Shown one piece after another: positions 25,009 to 46,900 of a stretch of 64,000 nt of DNA. This DNA is from Encephalitozoon hellem ATCC 50504. Its lineage: Eukaryota; Microsporidia; Unikaryonidae. The number at the start of each line of letters is the position of its first letter. Positions within the stretch are counted from its first letter, which is position 1. Position numbers and translations under genes: made by a program. Location of the stretch: the NCBI RefSeq assembly GCF_000277815.2, contig NW_004057898.1:1-64000 (forward strand), written 5' to 3'. The notes beneath the pieces were generated by a model, which saw only the letters and a list, made by a program, of their open reading frames with translations, ran no database searches and was not told where the DNA came from.

Positions 25009-25824
25009 TCACATCCCTAGAATACAATCTCTAATTCTCTCTCTTATTGAGCCGAGACTGGACCTGTCCACTCTCCCATCATGAATTTCAACACCAGCAG
25101 CATTGTAGTTCTTCATGTAAAGACTGCCCGGAGTACCCCTCCTGAAAAAGTAGAATGTTGGTATGGTGTTGAATATTTCTCCTACGTCTTTTATGTTCCA
25201 TCTACTCACCTGCCACTTGGTTCCATCAAGAAATATACACACAACTCTTTTCCAGTCCTCAGACGTGAATCTTGCCACGTCATCCACTGCAGTAAGCTTG
25301 TGCCCATCAATGCTTAGCTCCACCTTCTCAACCTCACTAATCTTGATCCCATCGGCACATCTACCCTCTTCAAAAAATTCTTCGATATTACTCAGGTTTA
25401 CAGGAGAAGAAACAGACTGAGGAACTATGACATAGTAGACCGTTGGCCTATTTTCGCCTTCTTTCTTGCAAAGATCACTCAGATAATTGTAGTCTCGAAA
25501 TCCGATGTATCTGAAATCCGGTCCATCAATCTTCGCCTGAGCAGTCGTCTCCTTGAAGTTTTCTATCTCTTCCACAATAATCTTCTGGTCTGTATAATAT
25601 ATCTTTCCTATTCCGCTTTCCCTACACAGTGTCATATATACAGTGTACTTTTTATCTTTGTTCAGCAAATAGAACAGAACTTGCTCAAACGTATATTCCT
25701 TTGTCTCTGTTCCCTTAAATTTAATAGTCTTCTTGGGAGAAACCTTCTTCCCACCGATTGTTATTTCGTCTGGGCCCATTTCACATGCATCGGGCTCCCT
25801 AAGCGCTCTCTTCAGCAGATCCAT
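25009..25824 (-). CDS. CDC73: Cdc73, Paf1 complex subunit
   Basis: This 271-residue protein matches Cdc73/parafibromin of the Paf1 transcription elongation complex. The C-terminal Ras-like Cdc73 domain starts around residue 120: 'RPTVYYVIVPQSVSSPVNLS', 'IEEFFEEGRCADG', then 'DWKRVVCIFLDGTKWQV' and 'WNIKDVGEIFNTIPTFYF', the invariant core of the family. The N-terminal half has 'DLLKRALREPDACEM' and a 'EYTFEQVLFYLLN' segment typical of Cdc73 N-termini. Yeast Cdc73 has 393 residues. It sits among other chromatin and transcription genes (E(z), MED7, EED) within 6 kb. Confidence 0.88.
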   Translation of the reverse strand: MDLLKRALREPDACEMGPDEITIGGKKVSPKKTIKFKGTETKEYTFEQVLFYLLNKDKKYTVYMTLCRESGIGKIYYTDQKIIVEEIENFKETTAQAKIDGPDFRYIGFRDYNYLSDLCKKEGENRPTVYYVIVPQSVSSPVNLSNIEEFFEEGRCADGIKISEVEKVELSIDGHKLTAVDDVARFTSEDWKRVVCIFLDGTKWQVSRWNIKDVGEIFNTIPTFYFFRRGTPGSLYMKNYNAAGVEIHDGRVDRSSLGSIRERIRDCILGM

Positions 25825-25940: not shown

Positions 25941-27608
25941 TCATGCTCCACTTCTCAGGCTTTTGTTAACAAAGTAATCATCCAAGACCTCTCCATCAAC
26001 AACCCCACGGTCCTTCAGTTCCAGAACACGAGGATGGAGTGCATCTAGATTAAAGGGCGGATCAGCAAATAGGTTGCTAAGAAGTCTCACAAATGTAACG
26101 GCTTCCTTTTTGTCCCGGGGAGTAAATGTAAACAGAAAGGATAGGTCAAAAATGTACTTGTGGACCATAAAGTATCTTATCAAGTCCAATGCCATAAACT
26201 TCGGCCCACTGTTGATTAGCATCCTTATTTCCTCTTCAACCTTGTCGTTATCATCAATGCTTGGATTCTGAAGATTGTCTAAAATGTGTGGGTATGCATA
26301 TTGGTGCTCGTCCTTAACCTTGTTGAGCATCGATTTGACACCCTCTGTATTGATTCTTGAGTATATTCTAAATTCCTTAGCAGAAACAAAATTCTTGTTA
26401 ATGAAATCGACAATGTCATCCCTGAACTCGTCTCGAAGTCTGTTTTCCCTCAGGAACTTTTCTGCAACCTCATAGACGTTTTCGTTGTTATTGAACGAAA
26501 GGGTGTAGTACTTGTTTTCTAGCTCAACCTGGAATGTATTATCATAGGGCTTGGATCCTTCTCCTTTGCCAAGGAGAATCCACTCTCCGTTTATTTCTTG
26601 ATACACATTCCCATTAGCAGCCTTGAACTTCTGTCCGTCAGACACAAACTCCCCGTCCTTTAATAGGGATCCCTGCTCATTCCTCATTTCCTCAATGGCC
26701 TTTCTTGCTTCGGATGAAGGATTCGAGGAGTACACATACAACCTCCCATCACTTCCTCCAACATACACTTTATCATTCCACCCAAACCCGGCCCAGCAAG
26801 ACGTCACAGGTATAGATAAACTCTGAATTGGCTTGAGACTTTCGTCAAATATAATAGCCGTCCCATTCTCCCCAGTACATATAACTAGGCCTTTGCCGTC
26901 ACAGGTATAGGAAAATATGCTATACATAAAATTCTTCGTAGAATAATGCTTCAGGATCCTTCCATCCAATGATACCTTGAGAACTATCCCTTCATTGTCG
27001 ATGGAAAAGATGTTCTCGTTCAAAACAGCAACTCCTCTGACATATGAAAGATGATGGTTAAATGTTCTAGTCAGAACTCCATTCTTAAAAATCCGGATCA
27101 ATTTATCACTACACCCAGTCACAATGGTATTTTCATTAATAAACTTGGCACACCAAACAACTGTGGGGTGCGGCATCTTCTGCACTATCCCACCCTTGTC
27201 GTTGTTCATTTGTCTTGGCTCCCAAACAATCACTGTGCAATCCCATGAGCTAGAGACAATAAAATCTCCCATCGTGTCTAAACAGCATACATTCGAAGAA
27301 TGGCCTTTTAAGAACCCCACAGGCACCACCTTTGTACCTTCTTCCTTGTGTCCATCCCTAAGCTGGCACTCGTCCAAAGAATATACAACTATGCTTCCAT
27401 TCTGGCATCCTGCAAATAGGAACCCGCCTCCAATCGCAACACAGTTGACATATCCCTGCCCAGGCTCAATCTCTGTATACCAGCCAAAATCATGCCCACA
27501 CACTCTTATCTTTCCTTCCCTTCCTCCACTAACAACTATATCATCCTTCACAAGAAGTGTTTTCACATCAGAAGTGCTTATCTTTTCAATTCTCTCTATT
27601 CCAATCAT
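25941..27608 (-). CDS. DOA1: Doa1/Ufd3/PLAA, Cdc48 ubiquitin adaptor
   Basis: The 555-residue protein is Doa1 (PLAA), which binds ubiquitin and Cdc48 in ubiquitin homeostasis and membrane protein turnover. A seven-bladed WD40 propeller covers about residues 1-300 ('LKGHSSNVCCLDTMGDFIVS', 'TVIVWEPRQ', 'VTGCSDKLIRIF'). The PFU ubiquitin-binding domain follows at about 335-425 ('FKAANGNVYQEINGEWILLG', 'YDNTFQVELENKYYTLSFNN'). A shortened helical PUL domain ends the protein. The long frame opens at a TTG; the first ATG is at 27608, five codons downstream, and CCC lies upstream of it. SHP1/p47 and RPT6 in this window act in the same degradation route. Confidence 0.88.
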   Translation of the reverse strand: MIGIERIEKISTSDVKTLLVKDDIVVSGGREGKIRVCGHDFGWYTEIEPGQGYVNCVAIGGGFLFAGCQNGSIVVYSLDECQLRDGHKEEGTKVVPVGFLKGHSSNVCCLDTMGDFIVSSSWDCTVIVWEPRQMNNDKGGIVQKMPHPTVVWCAKFINENTIVTGCSDKLIRIFKNGVLTRTFNHHLSYVRGVAVLNENIFSIDNEGIVLKVSLDGRILKHYSTKNFMYSIFSYTCDGKGLVICTGENGTAIIFDESLKPIQSLSIPVTSCWAGFGWNDKVYVGGSDGRLYVYSSNPSSEARKAIEEMRNEQGSLLKDGEFVSDGQKFKAANGNVYQEINGEWILLGKGEGSKPYDNTFQVELENKYYTLSFNNNENVYEVAEKFLRENRLRDEFRDDIVDFINKNFVSAKEFRIYSRINTEGVKSMLNKVKDEHQYAYPHILDNLQNPSIDDNDKVEEEIRMLINSGPKFMALDLIRYFMVHKYIFDLSFLFTFTPRDKKEAVTFVRLLSNLFADPPFNLDALHPRVLELKDRGVVDGEVLDDYFVNKSLRSGA

Positions 27609-27678: not shown

Positions 27679-29181
27679 TCAGTCAACTATCCCATGCTTT
27701 TCTTTGTGCTCCTTGCTGTACTCATAGTCAAAAAATAGCTCTTCTCCCTTGTCTATGTCTCTGCTCGCATAGAACCCTATTCTTCTAGTCCCGTTTACAA
27801 GTAAAATAAGTGCATTTAGGTTCGAATTCCTCTTCGAGTGATTGATGAATCTCGACTTGTTTCCTATGAATCTGGAATCAATGACATAAAAAGGCACTCC
27901 CTCTCTACTATATAGATCAAACAGATATGAACTCCTTCTTAGATCATAAAAGGCTCCCCTTCTCTCAGCTTCCTCGTTGCTTATTATTTCCCCCACATAC
28001 TCAATAACAAGCTTGCCTTTCAATATCTTCTTTTGGGCAAACAAGCCGCGTCCTTCTATTTGGCTAGGCGCCACAAATGTTGGCTCGGCCTTGCCCATCT
28101 GTAAATCCTTATTTCCGCATAAATCACATGAACATATTCCCATGCACTCTCTCATTGCCTGTCTGCATGCACATTTGTTGCCACATGCATGCAAACACTT
28201 GCATCCCATAAAGAAGTTCTTGCAACCTATGCAAAGACACGACATCTCACAGTTAGTCCTATTGGAGACACATATGCATCCGTTGTCTTCCGTACAGTCT
28301 CCAAGGTGATCACATGGCGTAAAGAAGGCAGAGGGGTCTATGCCTCCTTTGTTCCTGTTTCCCACTACATACTTATGCCGTCCTATGAAGGCCGTACAAA
28401 ATTCCTTTATTTCTTTGCATGGTATGTACCTTTTACATCTAAAGTAAAAAAGTAAGGAGGCTATGCATTCATAGCCCTGAGATGCCCAGCAGTCACTGTA
28501 AAGATCGCTATATGTTGCCTGGTCTATCTCATTTCTTGTGATACCTCCGTGCAGGCTCTTCATTTTCCTGCATATACTCCCGCAGATTTTTCCGGACTCA
28601 GGTTTTAGCACTGATGGGCTGCTCTTAAACCCCACAGGCTTGATACAAATTCCGTTTGTCTTGGAATGCCATCTACATCCAAATATAAGGCACACATTAC
28701 AAAATAACCTTCTCATTTCTAGCAGTTCCTTGTCTTTGGCATCCATCTCACTACATCTTGACTCGCTCGTAGCATCAAATCTATTGTAAGATATCTTTCG
28801 AGATTCCTTTATACTGTATGGACGTTGCTTTTCGAATGGTTTTATCTCCTTGAATTCTGTCAGGTTCACAAGACCAAACGCCCCTGGTATGCATGGGATA
28901 AACCTTAGAGCAGGATCGTCCTCTCCTCTTATGCTTTTATTTGTGAAAATAAAGAAGGCACCTCTTGTATCCGGCTCTATTCTTGGAATCACTATCTTCC
29001 CAATTGAAGGTTGGAAACAGCCTGTCTCAGGACGCCTCTCTGAATCCAAATCAGGGAAATTTTCACTCCCTACTACCACTCTCTTCATTTTTTTCTTATG
29101 TTCAAGCGCACCATGAAGTCCTGGTGCTTGGGCAGGTGCCACTTTGTCTGATGACTTGTTTGTGTCATTCCTCGAACCCAT
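27679..29181 (-). CDS. E(z): E(z)/EZH2-type histone H3K27 methyltransferase (PRC2 catalytic subunit)
   Basis: The 500-residue protein has the Enhancer-of-zeste domain order. An MCSS-type zinc module lies at about residues 158-210 ('LFCNVCLIFGCRWHS' and 'KICGSIC'). A helical segment at the SANT2 position ('DCWASQGYECIASLLFYFR') is followed by the CXC pre-SET domain from Cys290 to Cys355 ('PCDHLGDC', 'CLCIGC', 'FFMGCKC', 'CACRQAMRECMG'). The SET domain runs from about 365 to 492, with 'IEGRGLFAQKKI', 'YVGEIISNEEAERRG', 'RFINHS' (447-449 being NHS) and 'GEELFFDYEYS'. These features separate it from Suv39, Set1 and Set2. Its start overlaps the start of a plus-strand gene at a CCATGG. An EED homolog lies 1.5 kb away on the same strand. 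Confidence 0.93.
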   Translation of the reverse strand: MGSRNDTNKSSDKVAPAQAPGLHGALEHKKKMKRVVVGSENFPDLDSERRPETGCFQPSIGKIVIPRIEPDTRGAFFIFTNKSIRGEDDPALRFIPCIPGAFGLVNLTEFKEIKPFEKQRPYSIKESRKISYNRFDATSESRCSEMDAKDKELLEMRRLFCNVCLIFGCRWHSKTNGICIKPVGFKSSPSVLKPESGKICGSICRKMKSLHGGITRNEIDQATYSDLYSDCWASQGYECIASLLFYFRCKRYIPCKEIKEFCTAFIGRHKYVVGNRNKGGIDPSAFFTPCDHLGDCTEDNGCICVSNRTNCEMSCLCIGCKNFFMGCKCLHACGNKCACRQAMRECMGICSCDLCGNKDLQMGKAEPTFVAPSQIEGRGLFAQKKILKGKLVIEYVGEIISNEEAERRGAFYDLRRSSYLFDLYSREGVPFYVIDSRFIGNKSRFINHSKRNSNLNALILLVNGTRRIGFYASRDIDKGEELFFDYEYSKEHKEKHGIVD

Positions 29182-29314
29182 GGCAAACAAGAAGCGTCAA
29201 AGCTTTGAACAGGAGTTCATCGACTCATTTGTCAGCGACGAAGTCATTCACTGGAAGTTTGACCCGATTCTTCTTGACGACATTCTAAAGGATAGGATAG
29301 GCCAAGAAGAGTAG
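29180..29314 (+). CDS. Hypothetical 44-residue protein
   Basis: A complete 44-codon frame starts at the ATG in CCATGG and is preceded immediately by AACCC, the start-proximal signal. The product is hydrophilic, with a basic N-terminus (MANKKRQSFEQEF) and an acidic C-terminus ('PILLDDILKDRIGQEE'). It does not resemble any family I know. It lies 29 bp upstream of MED7 on the same strand and shares its initiation site, on the opposite strand, with E(z). The signal and position support a real gene, but its shortness leaves doubt. Confidence 0.5.
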   Translation: MANKKRQSFEQEFIDSFVSDEVIHWKFDPILLDDILKDRIGQEE

Positions 29315-29343
29315 GATATTAGTCGAGAATTCTTCTCCCCAAA

Positions 29344-29739
29344 ATGCCTGTGAGCACCTGGCCAGCCCCTCCGAAATTCAAGAAGAAGACACCTCCACAA
29401 ATACCATCTTCATATACAAGCTTCGGAACAAGCTACAAGGTGGAGAATGGTGTCCCTGTAAACACGTCGTTCCCCTCGGTGAGGTTTGACAAAGAAAGGT
29501 TCAAGGAGCTCATAAATCTCTCCTTCTCCACGTTCATCGAGCTACTAACATTCCCACTTGATCATGAAGAGCTAATAGAAGCTATAAGCAATGCACATCT
29601 TGAAATCAACCAAATTCTCAATGGAGGAAAGAAGATGGAGGCCATATATGAAATTAGAAGAATTAGGAACGATCACACAAGAAATAAAAATAGGATTGCA
29701 GAGGAAACTCGGAGAAAAGTAAGAGACTTCAAAATATAA
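29344..29739 (+). CDS. MED7: Mediator subunit Med7-like
   Basis: The 131-residue protein fits Med7 of the Mediator middle module. The N-terminus is proline-rich and begins 'STWPAPPKFKKKTPPQIPSS' followed by 'YTSFGTSY', the Med7 opening that binds Med31. The central helix 'FKELINLSFSTFIELLTFPL' and 'NAHLEINQILNGGKKMEAIY' match the coiled-coil region that pairs with Med21. Yeast Med7 has 222 residues, so the C-terminal part is reduced. CTCCCCAAA precedes the ATG. It is flanked by E(z) and EED genes on the other strand. Confidence 0.65.
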   Translation: MPVSTWPAPPKFKKKTPPQIPSSYTSFGTSYKVENGVPVNTSFPSVRFDKERFKELINLSFSTFIELLTFPLDHEELIEAISNAHLEINQILNGGKKMEAIYEIRRIRNDHTRNKNRIAEETRRKVRDFKI

Positions 29740-29767
29740 GCCTACATATTTATAGGATATACAAACA

Positions 29768-30703
29768 TCAAGTTAGATCTATTGCCATAAGATGGGTGTT
29801 CTCAAACAGAACAAACATCCGATTCTCAACCACACAGAAATCCTGGATCTTTTCCTTTTTAATGGACTCCAATATTTTAGGGTGTGAAATAAAGCCGATG
29901 TCGTTCATGTCGAACATAACTATATCGTGTGGTTCCATTAAAGCCACCAGAATATCTCCACTTATATCAAACTTCCGGAATAACCGCCTCTTCAATACGA
30001 TTTCCCCAGCAAGCACAACTTCTACAGAAGATTTCGCTTCTTCGTATTTCAGGGAGACTGCATGAATTTTTCTTTCCCCAGAATAGAATATAAGAAGCTC
30101 TCTGTAAAACCTTACACATTCAATAGGAAATTTGCATATGTCTGTGGACGAATAAATAGGGGATATGCACTCTAGCTTGTTCAGGTTCGATGGAATTCTC
30201 CATATTTTTATCGAACAATCTGTTCCGCAGGATGCCAGATACTTCATATCACTACTTACGTCTATTGATAAGACATAGTCCTTGTGCCCACTGTAGCCTC
30301 CAAATATACAGACACATGTCAATCCTGAAACATTCCACATCTTTATTGTTGTATCTTCGCTACAACTCAGCAGATATTCGTTTCCATATCTTTTGATTGA
30401 AGAAATGCACCCTCCATGGGCTCTAATGTGCCCTATAAATGCCCCCTTGGACAGGTTTATTATTTTTATGATGCCAAGCCTGCCTCCAAGTGCTAGCAAA
30501 ACATCATTTCCTGCCATAAAGAACTCACTGCACTGAAACTCTTCGTCGGGATGCTCGTCAAGAACCCTCTGAGCGATCTTGAGGTCGTCTCCATATGATA
30601 TGATTGCCGAGGTTCTTTTCCCGACTAGCGACACTATTCTGCATTTACCGTAACTGCTCATAGATTCGAAGCATGCATTTGGTATTTCAATTACCGAAGA
30701 CAT
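29768..30703 (-). CDS. EED: EED/ESC WD40 subunit of PRC2
   Basis: The 311-residue propeller resembles EED (extra sex combs), the PRC2 subunit that binds the E(z) N-terminal region and reads H3K27me3. Successive stretches match EED: 'LALGGRLGIIKIINLSKG', 'IRAHGGCISSIKRYG', 'LLSCSEDTTIKMWNV', 'CVCIFGGYSGHKDYVLSIDV' and 'ASCGTDCSIKIWRI'. The FGG-x2-GH-x2-x-VLS string is characteristic. Human EED has 441 residues; the N-terminal extension and some late loops are missing. The frame is open further to an ATG at 30760, inside the mevalonate kinase gene, but the ATG at 30703 has ACCCC abutting it. An unrelated WD40 protein is the alternative. Confidence 0.82.
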   Translation of the reverse strand: MSSVIEIPNACFESMSSYGKCRIVSLVGKRTSAIISYGDDLKIAQRVLDEHPDEEFQCSEFFMAGNDVLLALGGRLGIIKIINLSKGAFIGHIRAHGGCISSIKRYGNEYLLSCSEDTTIKMWNVSGLTCVCIFGGYSGHKDYVLSIDVSSDMKYLASCGTDCSIKIWRIPSNLNKLECISPIYSSTDICKFPIECVRFYRELLIFYSGERKIHAVSLKYEEAKSSVEVVLAGEIVLKRRLFRKFDISGDILVALMEPHDIVMFDMNDIGFISHPKILESIKKEKIQDFCVVENRMFVLFENTHLMAIDLT

Positions 30704-30728
30704 GGGGTAGTTAAGTGGGCACAACACA

Positions 30729-31559
30729 TTATTTCCAGACATCGAAAGCATGGAACCCATTCAGATCAATCGATACAGATGTCCATCCGGGGATCTCCTG
30801 TTCTTTTTTTACTACTGTTAAAAGATGTCCTCCGCAGCCGGCACCCGTTATCTTTGCCTCAATACCAATCTCTCTCATTTTATCTATTATGTCCTTTATC
30901 TCTCTAGGGCAAACCCCCAGTTCATCTAACAGGTCTTGGTTCTTCCTAATGAGTCTGTACAGTTCCTCCAAGGTAAACTCTCTTTGTAAAAGTTTGTATG
31001 CCTCTTCTGAAACTTTTCCTATTTCGCCGTACAACTCTTTCTTGCGCCTCCCTAGCCTGATGGCAGACTCTGTGTTCTTGGGTATCCTAGTGTTGAAGAT
31101 GAGTATTTTGAATTGAGAAAGGTGGTGAATAGAAAGCCTTTCAACAACGCCTTTTCTAAAGGAGATCAACCCGCCGGTATAGCAGGCCATCACGTCAACG
31201 CCAGACGCTTTTCCATGGAATGCATTCTCCATTTCAAGAGCTTCCTCTAATATATCTGGACTGCGGGCCTTGGCATATGATAACAGAAGCGATATGGCTG
31301 CACTTGTGCCCAGACCACACCCCAATGCGGCATCCAAAGACAGAGTCAAACGAAAGCCAGGAATGGCGTATCTCCATTTCTCAAATAGGTCCATATAATT
31401 ACCTTCTGCATCAACAGCAACAGCCTCAGTGCTCTTAGAAGACTCAATTGTTAGATATCCATATACATCTACTGCAACAGCAAGGCATCTTTCTCCTGAT
31501 AATACGGCATGCTCACCAAACAATATTACTTTGAGAGGAGATCTAGCCAAATGTGCCAT
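30729..31559 (-). CDS. ERG12: Mevalonate kinase
   Basis: The 276-residue GHMP kinase should phosphorylate mevalonate with ATP in the cytosolic isoprenoid pathway. Motif 1 is 'SPLKVILFGEHAVLSG', the ATP-binding motif 2 'GCGLGTSAAISLLLSY', the 'GKASGVDVMACYTGG' segment carries the catalytic Asp, and motif 3 'ITGAGCGGHLLTVV' is present. The FGEHAV and GKASGVD strings indicate mevalonate kinase rather than phosphomevalonate or galactose kinase. It is notably short: yeast and human enzymes have 396-443 residues. The cis-prenyltransferase gene at 47.3 kb lies further down the same pathway. Confidence 0.9.
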   Translation of the reverse strand: MAHLARSPLKVILFGEHAVLSGERCLAVAVDVYGYLTIESSKSTEAVAVDAEGNYMDLFEKWRYAIPGFRLTLSLDAALGCGLGTSAAISLLLSYAKARSPDILEEALEMENAFHGKASGVDVMACYTGGLISFRKGVVERLSIHHLSQFKILIFNTRIPKNTESAIRLGRRKKELYGEIGKVSEEAYKLLQREFTLEELYRLIRKNQDLLDELGVCPREIKDIIDKMREIGIEAKITGAGCGGHLLTVVKKEQEIPGWTSVSIDLNGFHAFDVWK

Positions 31560-42773: not shown

Positions 42774-43928
42774 TTACATTTTTCTTTTGTTCATCCACAG
42801 ATCATCTGACAACTTCCCAGGTATAATATCAGGGAGAACAAGTAAAGGCTTCCCAATCATTCTTCTTTTTAGCTCCCAGTATCTCAGTACTTTGGATATG
42901 TCTACGTCATGCCTGTCTTTTAGGTCGTGTATTTTTATCCTTGAAACGATAGATGGTATGGCTATTGGCTGCAAGCTGTTGAGCTTTGAGAACAGCGTGG
43001 GCTTGGGACATCCCATCGGGACTTTCTTCCTAATAATCGGTGGGTTGCGAAGTCTTTCGTAGCCAAACCTATTCGATGTGTTTATCTTTCTGTATCCTAG
43101 CTCGTATGGATTTCTCTTTGAGGGACTATGAAAGGTACAATAGGACAAGCTATTTCTCAGGTCAAAGTAACACTTGTCGAGAGCACATGAAACATGATAT
43201 TTTTTAGGACATGCAAAATAAGAGCAGTGTATCACAGTTCCACGACCTTCGTCACAGAAAAAGCATCCAGACTCCTTTCTATACGAGCTGACATCAATAG
43301 GGTCCTTTGAAAGAGGATGCCCAAAAGAAAGAGATCTGTTGAATATGGCACATAGAACATGACCCCATTTGTTGTCAGATGTCTGTTTGAAGGCACCATT
43401 AGATGAAACACAGAATGAGCATTCTCCCAGGGATTCCCCATATATGCATTTTCTGCACAGCCAGAAGTTACTTAGATCTTGGATTCCGTAGCAATTTTCA
43501 TGCACACATATTTCACATCCTTGGCACACAACAAGGGCCTCATCATTCTCTGACATGTACCTTGTGCAAATGTCACAAAAAGAAGATGGCTTTGCTTGCT
43601 TGACATGCCTTGCCACCAAGCCTCGTATAAAGAAGAACCACTCCTTTTCTAATCTGTCCATGATCAATTCAAAAATGCTTTCAGAAATATCTAGGTTTGA
43701 TAAATGCAAATAGTGTCGATCGTAGGCATCTATTCTGTACAAAGTAGATTCAAAGAAGTCTCTTCTTTGCTCCTTTCTAATCGTTTGTTTTCCCTCTAAC
43801 TTCTTACAAGGTCTGTAAACGCTGTCTGTGATGACGCGACGCATTCTCAGTAAGTCTATGTCGCGATATATGGATTTGTAGCCATGCTCTTCTCTTGGAA
43901 TGCTCTTGAGTGACTGTGGAGTAGACAT
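42774..43928 (-). CDS. PHD plus extended-PHD protein (Nto1/BRPF/JADE-like)
   Basis: The 384-residue protein carries the PHD-zinc knuckle-ePHD cassette of BRPF, JADE and yeast Nto1, scaffolds of MYST-type histone acetyltransferase complexes. PHD1 is 'CDICTRYMSENDEALVVCQG' with 'CEICVHENCYGI' and 'FWLCRKC'. The knuckle is 'CSFCVSSNGAFKQT', and the ePHD includes 'WGHVLCAIFNRSLSF', 'CFFCDEGRGTVIHCSY' and 'KKYHVSCAL'. The long upstream extension of the frame overlaps ELP1; the ATG at 43928 has CCACCCAAAA before it and leaves a 28-bp divergent spacer. No bromodomain or PWWP is present, so the architecture is closest to Nto1/JADE. Confidence 0.82.
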   Translation of the reverse strand: MSTPQSLKSIPREEHGYKSIYRDIDLLRMRRVITDSVYRPCKKLEGKQTIRKEQRRDFFESTLYRIDAYDRHYLHLSNLDISESIFELIMDRLEKEWFFFIRGLVARHVKQAKPSSFCDICTRYMSENDEALVVCQGCEICVHENCYGIQDLSNFWLCRKCIYGESLGECSFCVSSNGAFKQTSDNKWGHVLCAIFNRSLSFGHPLSKDPIDVSSYRKESGCFFCDEGRGTVIHCSYFACPKKYHVSCALDKCYFDLRNSLSYCTFHSPSKRNPYELGYRKINTSNRFGYERLRNPPIIRKKVPMGCPKPTLFSKLNSLQPIAIPSIVSRIKIHDLKDRHDVDISKVLRYWELKRRMIGKPLLVLPDIIPGKLSDDLWMNKRKM

Positions 43929-43956
43929 TTTTGGGTGGCAAAATTCCCCATAAGGA

Positions 43957-46900
43957 ATGGAAAATTTTTTTTCTCGGCATGTGAGCATAGCCGAGATAGG
44001 CAAAGATGACTGGATCTATAGCAAAGGATACATTGCGAAGGGTACTGCCATTTATGATGATTCGGGCACAAAGATGCTTGAGATTCCATTTGTCCCAAAG
44101 CATTTCCATGCTTTAGCATTTGAGTACTTCCTAATAGACGAGCTGAACACAATATATCTAATCAATAAGAGCACGGGGGAAACTTCCGAAATTGGACGAC
44201 TGAACAATGGGGTTAATGCTGTCAGTATATCCAAGGACGAGAATTGGTGTGTTATTATCTCTGGCAATGAGATTCTTCTTTTTGACACATATATTGACCT
44301 CAAGAAATCGATTGAGATTGATTTCGATGGCGTCATCCGAGTCGAATGGACGGACTATGGGCTTTTTGCAGTGCTAACCAGCAAAACGATATTCTTTTAT
44401 GATACTGAACTCAATCTATTAGGAAAAAGTAAAGAGGGGAAGTATGTAGACATTTGCTGGAGAAGCAAATATAATATATTTGGATGTTCAACAGGAACAG
44501 ATGTTCGCTTCATTGAGCCTAATGGGCTTGACCATGGAGACCCACTGGACGTACGATGCACTTCACTATCCTTTCTTGAAAATGAAGATCTACTTGTTAC
44601 AGCTGAAAAAAATGCTCAAGGCTCCCTACTCAAAGTATTCTACACAAAGAATTTTCATTGGTATCTGAAGATTTCAAAGCAGGTGTCTGGTAGGTTTTTA
44701 TGCATCGAGAAGAATGCAGTACTATTTGACGACGAAGAGAAGCTAGTAAGGGTTTTTTTGTTCAAGGAAAAGACATGCTGTGGGCCAGAATACTATGTAA
44801 TTGATGGAAACTGTATACTCTACACGGATTTTTCAGAAAAGATCATTCCCCCTCCATTCTTCTCCACAAGAATTGACCTTGATAAAAACATTATTGATGT
44901 CTTTCCAGGAAAAAAAAAAGGCGCGGTTCTCCAGAAGGATGAGGTGACTATCTTCAGGTGGGAGAATGGTGACTTTGTGAGGGTAAAGACATTCCTTCTA
45001 AAAGAGGAGTTTGACTCTGTTTTACTGTTTGGCAACCTTCTCCTTCTGAAGGGCAGAAGCTCGTTTCTTGTCAAAGGAATGAGTGAAGAAAAAGAAATAT
45101 ACATAAATAAGAACTCAGAGACTGATGAGGGAAAATGGCCGAGCATTATAGGCACAGATAGTATTTGTAGGCAATTGCAAGATGCATTGAGGGGACCAGG
45201 AGGTATTGCCAAGTGCTATAATCTCAAGGAGAAATTGTGTCTGGTATTAGAAGATGGATCTGTCATCTACGATGGCACTAAGATATATTCTGGAGTAGAT
45301 CTGTCGCAGAGGTTTGAGATAGTTATAGAGGAGGATACTTATATCCATAATGGGATGGGGCTTTGTATAAATGGCGAGATTACGGAGAATGTAGCTTCAT
45401 TCTTAGTTGGAGAGCTTGGCATGATCACTGTATCCGAGGGTATGTGTAGGTTTCTCTTTGAGTCCAAAGAAAGTACTTGCCAGGTCGATCACAATCTAGA
45501 GCTTCTATGCGCCGTAGATTTCAGAGTGATTGGGATGACTAGACACGGGACACTTGAAACATACACCCCTAAGATTTATACACTAGCATTTGTGAAGAAG
45601 CTTTTGTTTGATGGGAAGTATAAGGATGCAGTAGACGGATGTCTGAGACATGTCGTTCCCTTTAGGGTATTTCTAGACTATGATATTGAATTCAAGAAAT
45701 TTGTGGATGGATGTAAAGATGCACATCTGATATCATTTTTCAATGAAGCCCTTCAAAGGCTCGATGGCTTCGATTTCGTCCTTGAAAGTGAGAGGGCCAA
45801 AAGACTTAGAAGGGTTTTCAATTCTGCTGTAGTCCTGGAGTCCGAAAATGCTAGAGAGCATTTTGATGGAATGATAAAGCATGACGAGTCAATAAGTTCA
45901 AATGCCCTTGCTCATCTAGTTGGATGGAAGTACAAAGGGGAGCCTTATGATCAGGAAACCTGCAGAGGTGAGTACGAAAATACTCTCGAGAAGAACTCTA
46001 ATATGTGTGGACGGAGACCTAGAGATTTCTTCAATGAGCTACTCTTGTCTCTAGATCTAGAAAAGAATTTCAAGTTTATTATTTTCTTGCTTGTGAAAGT
46101 AAAGAGAGTAGATCTAGCACTTTTGGTGGCCAGGCACGACTTAAAGGCAGGTATTGAGTATATGCTATCTATAACCAGTATAGATAATGTTATAAATTCT
46201 GCATTGGAGAGCTGCGATGAAAACTTGATACGTGAAACAATGGAGGCCTGCCGAAAAGACTCGTCGGACTTTCTTTCTTTAATTCATAGCTGTGAGGAAG
46301 GTTTGCGGAGGTTTAAAGTTAATGATTTCCTTGAGAATAGAGTCGATGCTCTTTGGCATCTGAGCAGAACAGAAATGGTTGATCTCGAAAGAGAATATAT
46401 AAAAAAGCATAGCCTTGTTGAAGAAGCACTGATGTATGAAGCCTGTGGGTTGAGCATTAGAGAAGAGGGACATTACTTCAATCTGTGTGCAGAGCTTCTT
46501 TCTCCCGACAAGGCCTTGATCCTTTTTAAAAAAACAGGGAACATAGAGAAGGCTTTAGAGGTATCTTTAGAAAATCTGTATTGGAGAGAGGCCTTAGATC
46601 TTTGCGACAAGGAAAATTGGAGGGATCTTTGCAAGCTGTTGGCCTGTAGGCTTTCAGAGTCTGGAAGGCATTATGAATCAGGCAAATTGCTGGAGGAGTT
46701 TCTAGAAGATCCGGAAGGGGCCTTTGGCGAGTATATAAGGGCTAGAAGTATGGGAAATGCTTTAAGACTATGCACAGATGATGAATGCCTCATAAGGGAA
46801 TCACGTGATATTCTGAGGGAGAAGCTCCTATCTCTTGATGATATCAAAAGATCCTTTATAAAATACAGGAACAGATTAGAAGCTCTTGAAGAAAGGGAGG

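What the first reader, a model, noticed from the sequence alone, without database searches (positions are those of the whole stretch)
27679..30703. A Polycomb PRC2 pair (E(z) and EED) within 3 kb of a microsporidian-type genome
The minus-strand gene at 27679-29181 has the E(z) architecture (MCSS zinc module, SANT2-like helix, CXC, SET with RFINHS and FFDYEYS). The minus-strand gene at 29768-30703 matches EED/ESC across several propeller blades. PRC2 is absent from many fungi, including baker's and fission yeast, so an H3K27 methylation system in so reduced a genome would be notable. The proximity suggests co-inheritance; only MED7 and a 44-residue gene lie between. A plausible target is silencing of subtelomeric or host-stage genes. 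SUZ12 was not seen in this window.
Basis: partly seen in the sequence, partly recalled or inferred. Interest (0 to 1): 0.85.

Follow-up and report, generated by a model that had tools for sequence, protein, structure and literature searches.

The report
Stripped-down Polycomb methyltransferase pair in Encephalitozoon
A parasite with one of the smallest nuclear genomes known keeps, side by side, the enzyme and one partner of the Polycomb gene-silencing machine; this enzyme is the only one of its SET-domain class that we could find in its genome, and it may do the work that other organisms split between two silencing systems.

Summary
Window 27679-29181(-) encodes an E(z)/EZH2-type methyltransferase and 29768-30703(-) an EED-type propeller, in an Encephalitozoon hellem genome. 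E(z) itself is not new: an NCBI record names it EZH2, and PMC10158259 lists it as "Clr4/EZH2" and argues for H3K9 heterochromatin.

Added here. (1) It is the only SET gene found in the 2.25-Mb assembly, also with a Set2 query. (2) HP1 and an RBBP4-type protein are present; Suv39, JmjC, BAH and Dot1 were not found (mostly weak controls). (3) The EED model ranks EED structures first, but the H3K27me3-binding aromatic cage is not conserved. (4) Thirteen of 13 microsporidian E(z)s carry a 3-5 residue SET-loop insertion that 17 of 17 other E(z) rows lack and SUV39H2 and Clr4 have. (5) One of two H3s keeps both lysines in similar contexts (SARKT, SARKA); the other lacks K27.

Best reading: a pared-down PRC2-type core, the cell's only SET writer of H3 methylation, probably read by HP1. 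The residue written (K27, K9 or both) is open. No SUZ12 was found, but no positive control rang. No activity was tested.

The parts
27679..29181 (-). E(z)/EZH2-type SET methyltransferase, 500 aa: N-terminal stretch with SRM-like motif, MCSS-like zinc module, SANT2-like stretch, CXC, SET; no cysteines after the SET domain
27703..28317 (-). CXC+SET part (residues 289-493)
   Evidence: EZH2 match over residues 287-493; SET hit 27724-28053
27841..27921 (-). SET loop with a 5-residue insertion relative to other E(z): interval from the EZH2 F667 to the N688 equivalent (residues 421-447) is 26 instead of 21 residues
29768..30703 (-). EED-type WD40 propeller, 311 aa, aromatic cage not conserved
29344..29739 (+). 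short gene between the pair, possibly MED7 (below Pfam cut-off)
29180..29314 (+). 44-aa ORF; its ATG overlaps the E(z) start by 2 bases; no Pfam match at E<=0.1

Best explanation
The two genes encode the catalytic subunit and the propeller scaffold of a pared-down PRC2-type complex. In well-studied eukaryotes E(z) methylates H3 when held by EED and SUZ12; here E(z) and EED (perhaps with an RBBP4-type protein) are kept while no other SET enzyme was found, so this pair is likely the cell's only SET writer of histone H3 methylation. The mark (most likely H3K27, possibly also H3K9) is laid on the H3 that carries the canonical tail, is probably read by the HP1 protein, and probably serves silencing of chromosome-end and rDNA chromatin. 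EED has lost the aromatic cage, so it should hold the enzyme together without the H3K27me3-driven positive feedback of canonical PRC2. Shown here: homology, fold of EED, lysine-channel residues, gene content, cage loss, SET-loop insertion. Inferred: complex formation, activity, site, reader and targets.
Against: No VEFS/SUZ12 match. EED cage missing. SET loop of Suv39-like length; AU tests on the SET domain alone do not reject grouping with Suv39 (p 0.083), Set2 (0.050) or MLL (0.099). E(z) model poor (mean pLDDT 54), so EED-binding and SANT parts are unverified. The second H3 gene, next to H4, lacks K27; if it is the bulk H3, as PMC10158259 assumes, most nucleosomes offer no K27 site. PMC10158259-style searches in Microsporidia sp. 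MB found Swi6/HP1 but list only three of five Clr4-complex parts, Clr4 not among them (PMC13174016), so HP1 may persist without this enzyme. A second chromodomain protein (CHD-like) is another possible reader. No activity data.
Confidence: 0.65

Rival explanations
1. The gene is functionally the H3K9 methyltransferase (the 'Clr4' of PMC10158259): an E(z) by descent that has taken over the Suv39 role and writes H3K9me for HP1, with K27 minor or unused.
For: HP1 is present with no Suv39-type SET gene found; the SET loop interval is 24-26 in 13/13 microsporidian E(z) rows, as in SUV39H2 (24) and Clr4 (26), against 21 in 17/17 other E(z) rows; loss of the EED cage; the K9 context SARKT keeps T10 while K27 has A28.
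Against: CXC in the place of pre-SET, no cysteines after SET, no chromodomain in the protein; an EED gene is kept next door; E(z) lies on the E(z) side of the tree; the Suv39-type comparison rests on two sequences; loop length alone does not set specificity.
Confidence: 0.15
2. Decaying relic: E(z) and EED are leftovers with little chromatin activity, as some Microsporidia are reported to have no SET gene at all (PMC9692433).
For: Lost cage, no SUZ12 found, low-confidence N-terminal half; SET-free Microsporidia are reported.
Against: Both genes are intact; E(z) rows are named from Encephalitozoon, Ordospora, Trachipleistophora, Vavraia and Vairimorpha, and the lysine-channel residues are invariant in the 14 rows examined; genes without use are rarely kept in so small a genome (inference).
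Confidence: 0.1
3. The pair methylates a non-histone protein and has left chromatin.
For: Cage loss removes the best-known histone contact of EED; one of the two H3s lacks K27; no activity data.
Against: HP1, an RBBP4-type protein and an H3 with K9 and K27 are kept.
Confidence: 0.1

Closest known systems
Canonical PRC2 core (human EZH2-EED-SUZ12-RBBP4; Chaetomium ctPRC2)
   Same: E(z) with CXC+SET and conserved lysine channel; EED propeller; RBBP4-type protein and an H3 with K27 in the genome
   Different: 500-aa E(z); no SUZ12 detected (sensitivity unproven); EED aromatic cage lost; SET loop 5 residues longer
Cryptococcus neoformans PRC2 (Ezh2, Eed1, Bnd1, Msl1, Ccc1)
   Same: Fungal PRC2 in which SUZ12 was first thought missing
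   Different: [quoted passage not shown] no counterpart was found here
Paramecium Ezl1 PRC2 (PMC6586856)
   Same: E(z)-type enzyme; Y at EZH2 position 665 and an acidic residue at 668, both discussed there in relation to H3K9 enzymes (these two residues occur in many other E(z) rows too)
   Different: Ezl1 was shown to methylate K9 and K27; here it is a hypothesis. Ezl1 has apolar residues at EZH2 D652 and D659; here they are E and D by eye on the alignment
Clr4/Suv39 (KMT1), the published label of this gene in Encephalitozoon
   Same: SET loop length; HP1 in the same genome
   Different: CXC not pre-SET, no post-SET cysteines, no chromodomain, EED gene next door

Membership tests
E(z)/EZH2 (KMT6) | CXC domain directly before SET | tested here: met
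   EZH2 match over residues 287-493; 16 of 18 EZH2 CXC cysteines
E(z)/EZH2 (KMT6) | Lysine-channel and catalytic residues (EZH2 Y641, F667, N688, H689, Y726) | tested here: met
   identical in the window and 13 related rows
E(z)/EZH2 (KMT6) | SET domain groups with E(z) | tested here: inconclusive
   tree support 94/89 for the E(z) side, but AU tests do not reject alternatives
E(z)/EZH2 (KMT6) | MCSS zinc module | tested here: met
   cysteine pattern aligns with oomycete E(z) P0018; the model does not resolve it
E(z)/EZH2 (KMT6) | SANT2 and EED-binding helix | tested here: inconclusive
   low-confidence model
E(z)/EZH2 (KMT6) | H3K27 methyltransferase activity | not testable with these tools
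   needs an assay
EED/ESC | Sequence and fold closer to EED than to other WD40 propellers | tested here: met
   one-stretch profile score and first 41 structure rows; whole-sequence E-values alone rank repetitive WD40 chains higher
EED/ESC | H3K27me3 aromatic cage (F97, Y148, W364, Y365): a functional feature of canonical EED, not used here to define homology | tested here: not met
   Y148 absent or non-aromatic in 22/22 microsporidian-type rows; W364 not W in 22/22 (F in 3, gap in 2); Y365 F in the window, non-aromatic in 21 others; F97 not placeable
PRC2 complex | SUZ12 with VEFS box | tested here: inconclusive
   no match at E<=10, no control genome rang
PRC2 complex | RBBP4/p55 | tested here: met
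   CAF1C_H4-bd domain at C7:91560-91769, 5.9e-29; listed as RBBP4 in PMC10158259
PRC2 complex | Substrate lysine K27 in H3 | tested here: met
   L003 H3 tail ...KSARKAV...; the H4-adjacent H3 lacks it
Suv39/Clr4 (KMT1) | pre-SET domain | tested here: inconclusive
   no match in the genome at E<=10, control silent; CXC stands in its place
Suv39/Clr4 (KMT1) | post-SET cysteines and, in Clr4, a chromodomain | tested here: not met
   no cysteine after Y486; only SET reaches Pfam's cut-off

The most novel reading that the evidence does not exclude
A single E(z)-EED pair has absorbed the Suv39 job: after loss of the other SET enzymes, microsporidian E(z) acquired a Suv39-like substrate loop, H3's two sites converged on SARK, and one writer marks both K9 and K27 for an HP1 reader, without EED feedback: a one-enzyme heterochromatin system.
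Probability: 0.27. Interest if true: 0.8.

Novelty: new variant of a known kind. Interest (0 to 1): 0.57.

Why it matters
If right, Encephalitozoon would have one of the simplest chromatin-silencing systems described: one SET enzyme, one scaffold and one HP1. It would show that the SET enzymes for H3K4 and H3K36 (Set1, Set2) can be dispensed with while an E(z) is kept, would correct the published H3K9/Clr4 reading of Encephalitozoon heterochromatin, and would offer a natural case of PRC2 without H3K27me3 feedback. An E(z) as the only SET enzyme would also be a clear target to examine with existing EZH2 inhibitors.

Tried and rejected
SET-only phylogeny as decisive proof: it favours E(z) but AU tests do not reject the alternatives, so the case rests on CXC+SET scores, architecture and the EED partner.

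'E. cuniculi has lost E(z)': suggested by the lack of an E. cuniculi row, rejected because PMC10158259, on three species, lists three loci for this gene.

SUZ12, JmjC, BAH, Dot1 and pre-SET searches gave nothing. For VEFS and pre-SET no control rang; JmjC and BAH each rang in one prokaryote control, below the cut-off; Dot1 rang in six controls, over the cut-off in one. So these absences are weak to moderate.

The Y at EZH2 665 and the D at 668 are shared with many other E(z) rows, so they were not used as evidence for K9 activity. The human-EED profile alignment (5.5e-44) was not used to tell EED from other WD40 proteins, since no other propeller was compared in it.

The window's own-genome assembly is 2.25 Mb in 12 contigs and may miss chromosome ends, so 'only SET gene' means 'only one found in this assembly'. 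Introns could also hide a match.
Full report
WHAT IS THERE. The minus-strand ORF 27679-29181 (500 aa) and the minus-strand ORF 29768-30760 (330 aa; true start at M20, base 30703) are open and uninterrupted. Between them lie a plus-strand gene that may be MED7 (15.2 bits, cut-off 25.8) and a 44-aa ORF whose ATG overlaps that of the methyltransferase gene by two bases. The organism is Encephalitozoon hellem or a near-identical strain: the 500-aa protein matches an E. hellem record named histone-lysine N-methyltransferase EZH2 at all but two positions. The window lies on a 66.6-kb contig of a 2.25-Mb, 12-contig assembly.

E(z). Over residues 287-493 the best PDB match is human EZH2 (132 bits, 1.8e-37); the next family, SUV39H2, reaches 78 bits and SETD2 67. 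Sixteen of the 18 EZH2 CXC cysteines and the lysine-channel residues Y641, F667, N688, H689 and Y726 are kept in the window and in all 13 related rows examined. The zinc module before the SANT2-like stretch lines up with an oomycete E(z). A tree of 39 SET domains places 13 microsporidian rows together (98/98) on the E(z) side, apart from Set2, Suv39 and MLL rows (94/89). The SET domain alone is not decisive: AU tests for holding the microsporidian rows with Suv39, Set2 or MLL give p 0.083, 0.050 and 0.099. The E(z) identity therefore rests on the CXC+SET match, the architecture and the EED gene next door.

LINKAGE. Of the 15 E(z) rows P0001-P0015, five have a longest contig of exactly the same length as that of an EED row (68163, 268753, 86210, 163969, 44860), which suggests, without proving, that the two genes sit on one contig in those species as well.

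LOST CAGE. Human EED reads H3K27me3 with F97, Y148, W364 and Y365 (recalled; numbering checked against the sequence). In 22 of 22 microsporidian-type rows the Y148 place is a deletion or a non-aromatic residue. W364 is W in none (F in three, gap in two). Y365 is F in the window and non-aromatic in the other 21. F97 cannot be placed. Two MAFFT modes agree on the W364 and Y365 columns, and the profile alignment treats Y148 as an insertion of the human protein. Row P0059, which looks like a canonical EED, has F at Y148. Prediction: this EED cannot drive the usual H3K27me3 feedback.

ONLY SET GENE. A six-frame search with the Pfam SET profile finds one locus at E<=0.001 and still only one at E<=10. 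A fungal Set2 protein used as query also finds only this locus, at 1.9e-17: since a Set2 query finds even the E(z) SET domain, a true Set1, Set2 or Suv39 gene should have been seen. Dot1, JmjC and BAH were not found (weak to moderate controls). PMC9692433 (passages and section 3.1 read) reports E(z) genes in some Microsporidia and no SET gene in several.

READERS AND SUBSTRATE. The genome encodes an HP1 (156 aa, chromo 1e-20, shadow 4.8e-12) and an RBBP4-type protein. A second chromodomain protein, with two chromo hits before an SNF2 helicase (CHD-like by eye), lies on C1. There are two H3 genes. The standalone one (L003) keeps the canonical tail, with K9 in QSARKTT and K27 in KSARKAV, and matches H3.1 at 171 bits. 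The one next to H4 (L002) has a tail without K27 and with a changed K9 context, and scores 136-139 bits against plain H3 and H3/CENP-A chimeras alike. PMC10158259 calls the standalone gene CENP-A on synteny grounds. The tail and the scores suggest the reverse, but the standalone H3 has a two-residue longer loop 1, a CENP-A-like trait (recalled), and the H4-adjacent one does not. So it is likely, not settled, that the lysines sit on bulk H3; if not, the PRC2 reading is weakened.

A SUV39-LIKE LOOP. From the EZH2 F667 to the N688 equivalent there are 21 residues in 17 of 17 other E(z) rows (human included; several are near-copies), in six Set2-type rows and in MLL1, but 24-26 in 13 of 13 microsporidian rows; SUV39H2 has 24 and Clr4 26. 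The insertion is a shared trait of microsporidian E(z) and follows the strand that holds the substrate (the latter is recalled structural knowledge). Only two KMT1 sequences were compared.

HOW IT MOST LIKELY WORKS. E(z) and EED form the core of a pared-down PRC2-type enzyme that is the cell's only SET writer of H3 methylation. Because HP1 is kept but no Suv39 was found, either HP1 reads the E(z) product at K27 or E(z) also writes K9. [quoted passage not shown]). The likeness of both H3 sites (SARK), the Suv39-like loop and the lost EED cage fit a one-writer, one-reader system, but none of them shows it. Against it, PMC13174016 reports Swi6/HP1 but not Clr4 in Microsporidia sp. MB (passage), so HP1 may have other work. 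The likely targets are rDNA and subtelomeres, which PMC10158259 and PMC4704409 propose as heterochromatin on other grounds (passages read).

WHAT WAS KNOWN. PMC10158259 lists this gene as Clr4/EZH2 (second-column locus 01g01810, which I take to be E. hellem; column heads not seen) and discusses it as the H3K9 enzyme Clr4; polycomb, EED, H3K27 and H3K27me3 have no occurrence in its main text. The surveys PMC10638273, PMC8788455 and PMC7348808 do not mention Microsporidia or Encephalitozoon in their main texts. Searches on microsporidia with PRC2, H3K27, Polycomb, EZH2, EED and histone marks listed no paper on a microsporidian PRC2, on the cage loss or on the loop; only listings and the passages named here were seen, and most subscription papers are not in that library.

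LIMITS. No activity, expression or localisation data. SUZ12 absence is unproven (no control rang); PMC10638273 notes that SUZ12 can be missed because it diverges (passages). The assembly may be incomplete. The E(z) model is poor. On checking this report against the calls, I added the H3 ambiguity, the Microsporidia sp. MB result and the second chromodomain protein, and lowered the best explanation from 0.70 to 0.65, the novel case from 0.30 to 0.27, and raised two rivals to 0.10 each.

Noticed in passing
L003:1483-1917 and L002:1483-1905 (own genome C3 and C9): Of the two H3 genes, the standalone one has the canonical K9/K27 tail and the higher H3.1 score, the one next to H4 a degenerate tail: this speaks against the synteny-based CENP-A assignment in PMC10158259, but the standalone gene has the longer loop 1, so it is not settled.
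   Followed up: partly
L012 (own genome C1, about 25083-25400, minus strand): Second chromodomain protein, CHD-like: two chromo hits and an SNF2 helicase part in a 1258-aa frame.
   Followed up: partly
window 42774-43988 (-): PHD + extended-PHD protein with a weak EPL1-like stretch (NuA3/BRPF-like by recall); such reader modules persist although no Set1 or Set2 was found.
   Followed up: no
window 25009-25824 (-): Cdc73 C-terminal domain protein (PAF1 complex) kept although no Set1/Set2, which PAF1 normally supports (recalled), was found.
   Followed up: no
window 29180-29314 (+) and 29181 (-): A 44-aa ORF and E(z) start head to head with ATGs overlapping by two bases; the E(z) N-terminus is alike in E. 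romaleae and Ordospora.
   Followed up: no
window E(z) residues 212 and 487: The window differs from the E. hellem record P0001 at two residues (G for E, E for G), the second just after the catalytic Tyr.
   Followed up: no
window 25941-27608 (-): Doa1/PLAA-type protein (WD40 plus PFU domain) next to E(z).
   Followed up: no
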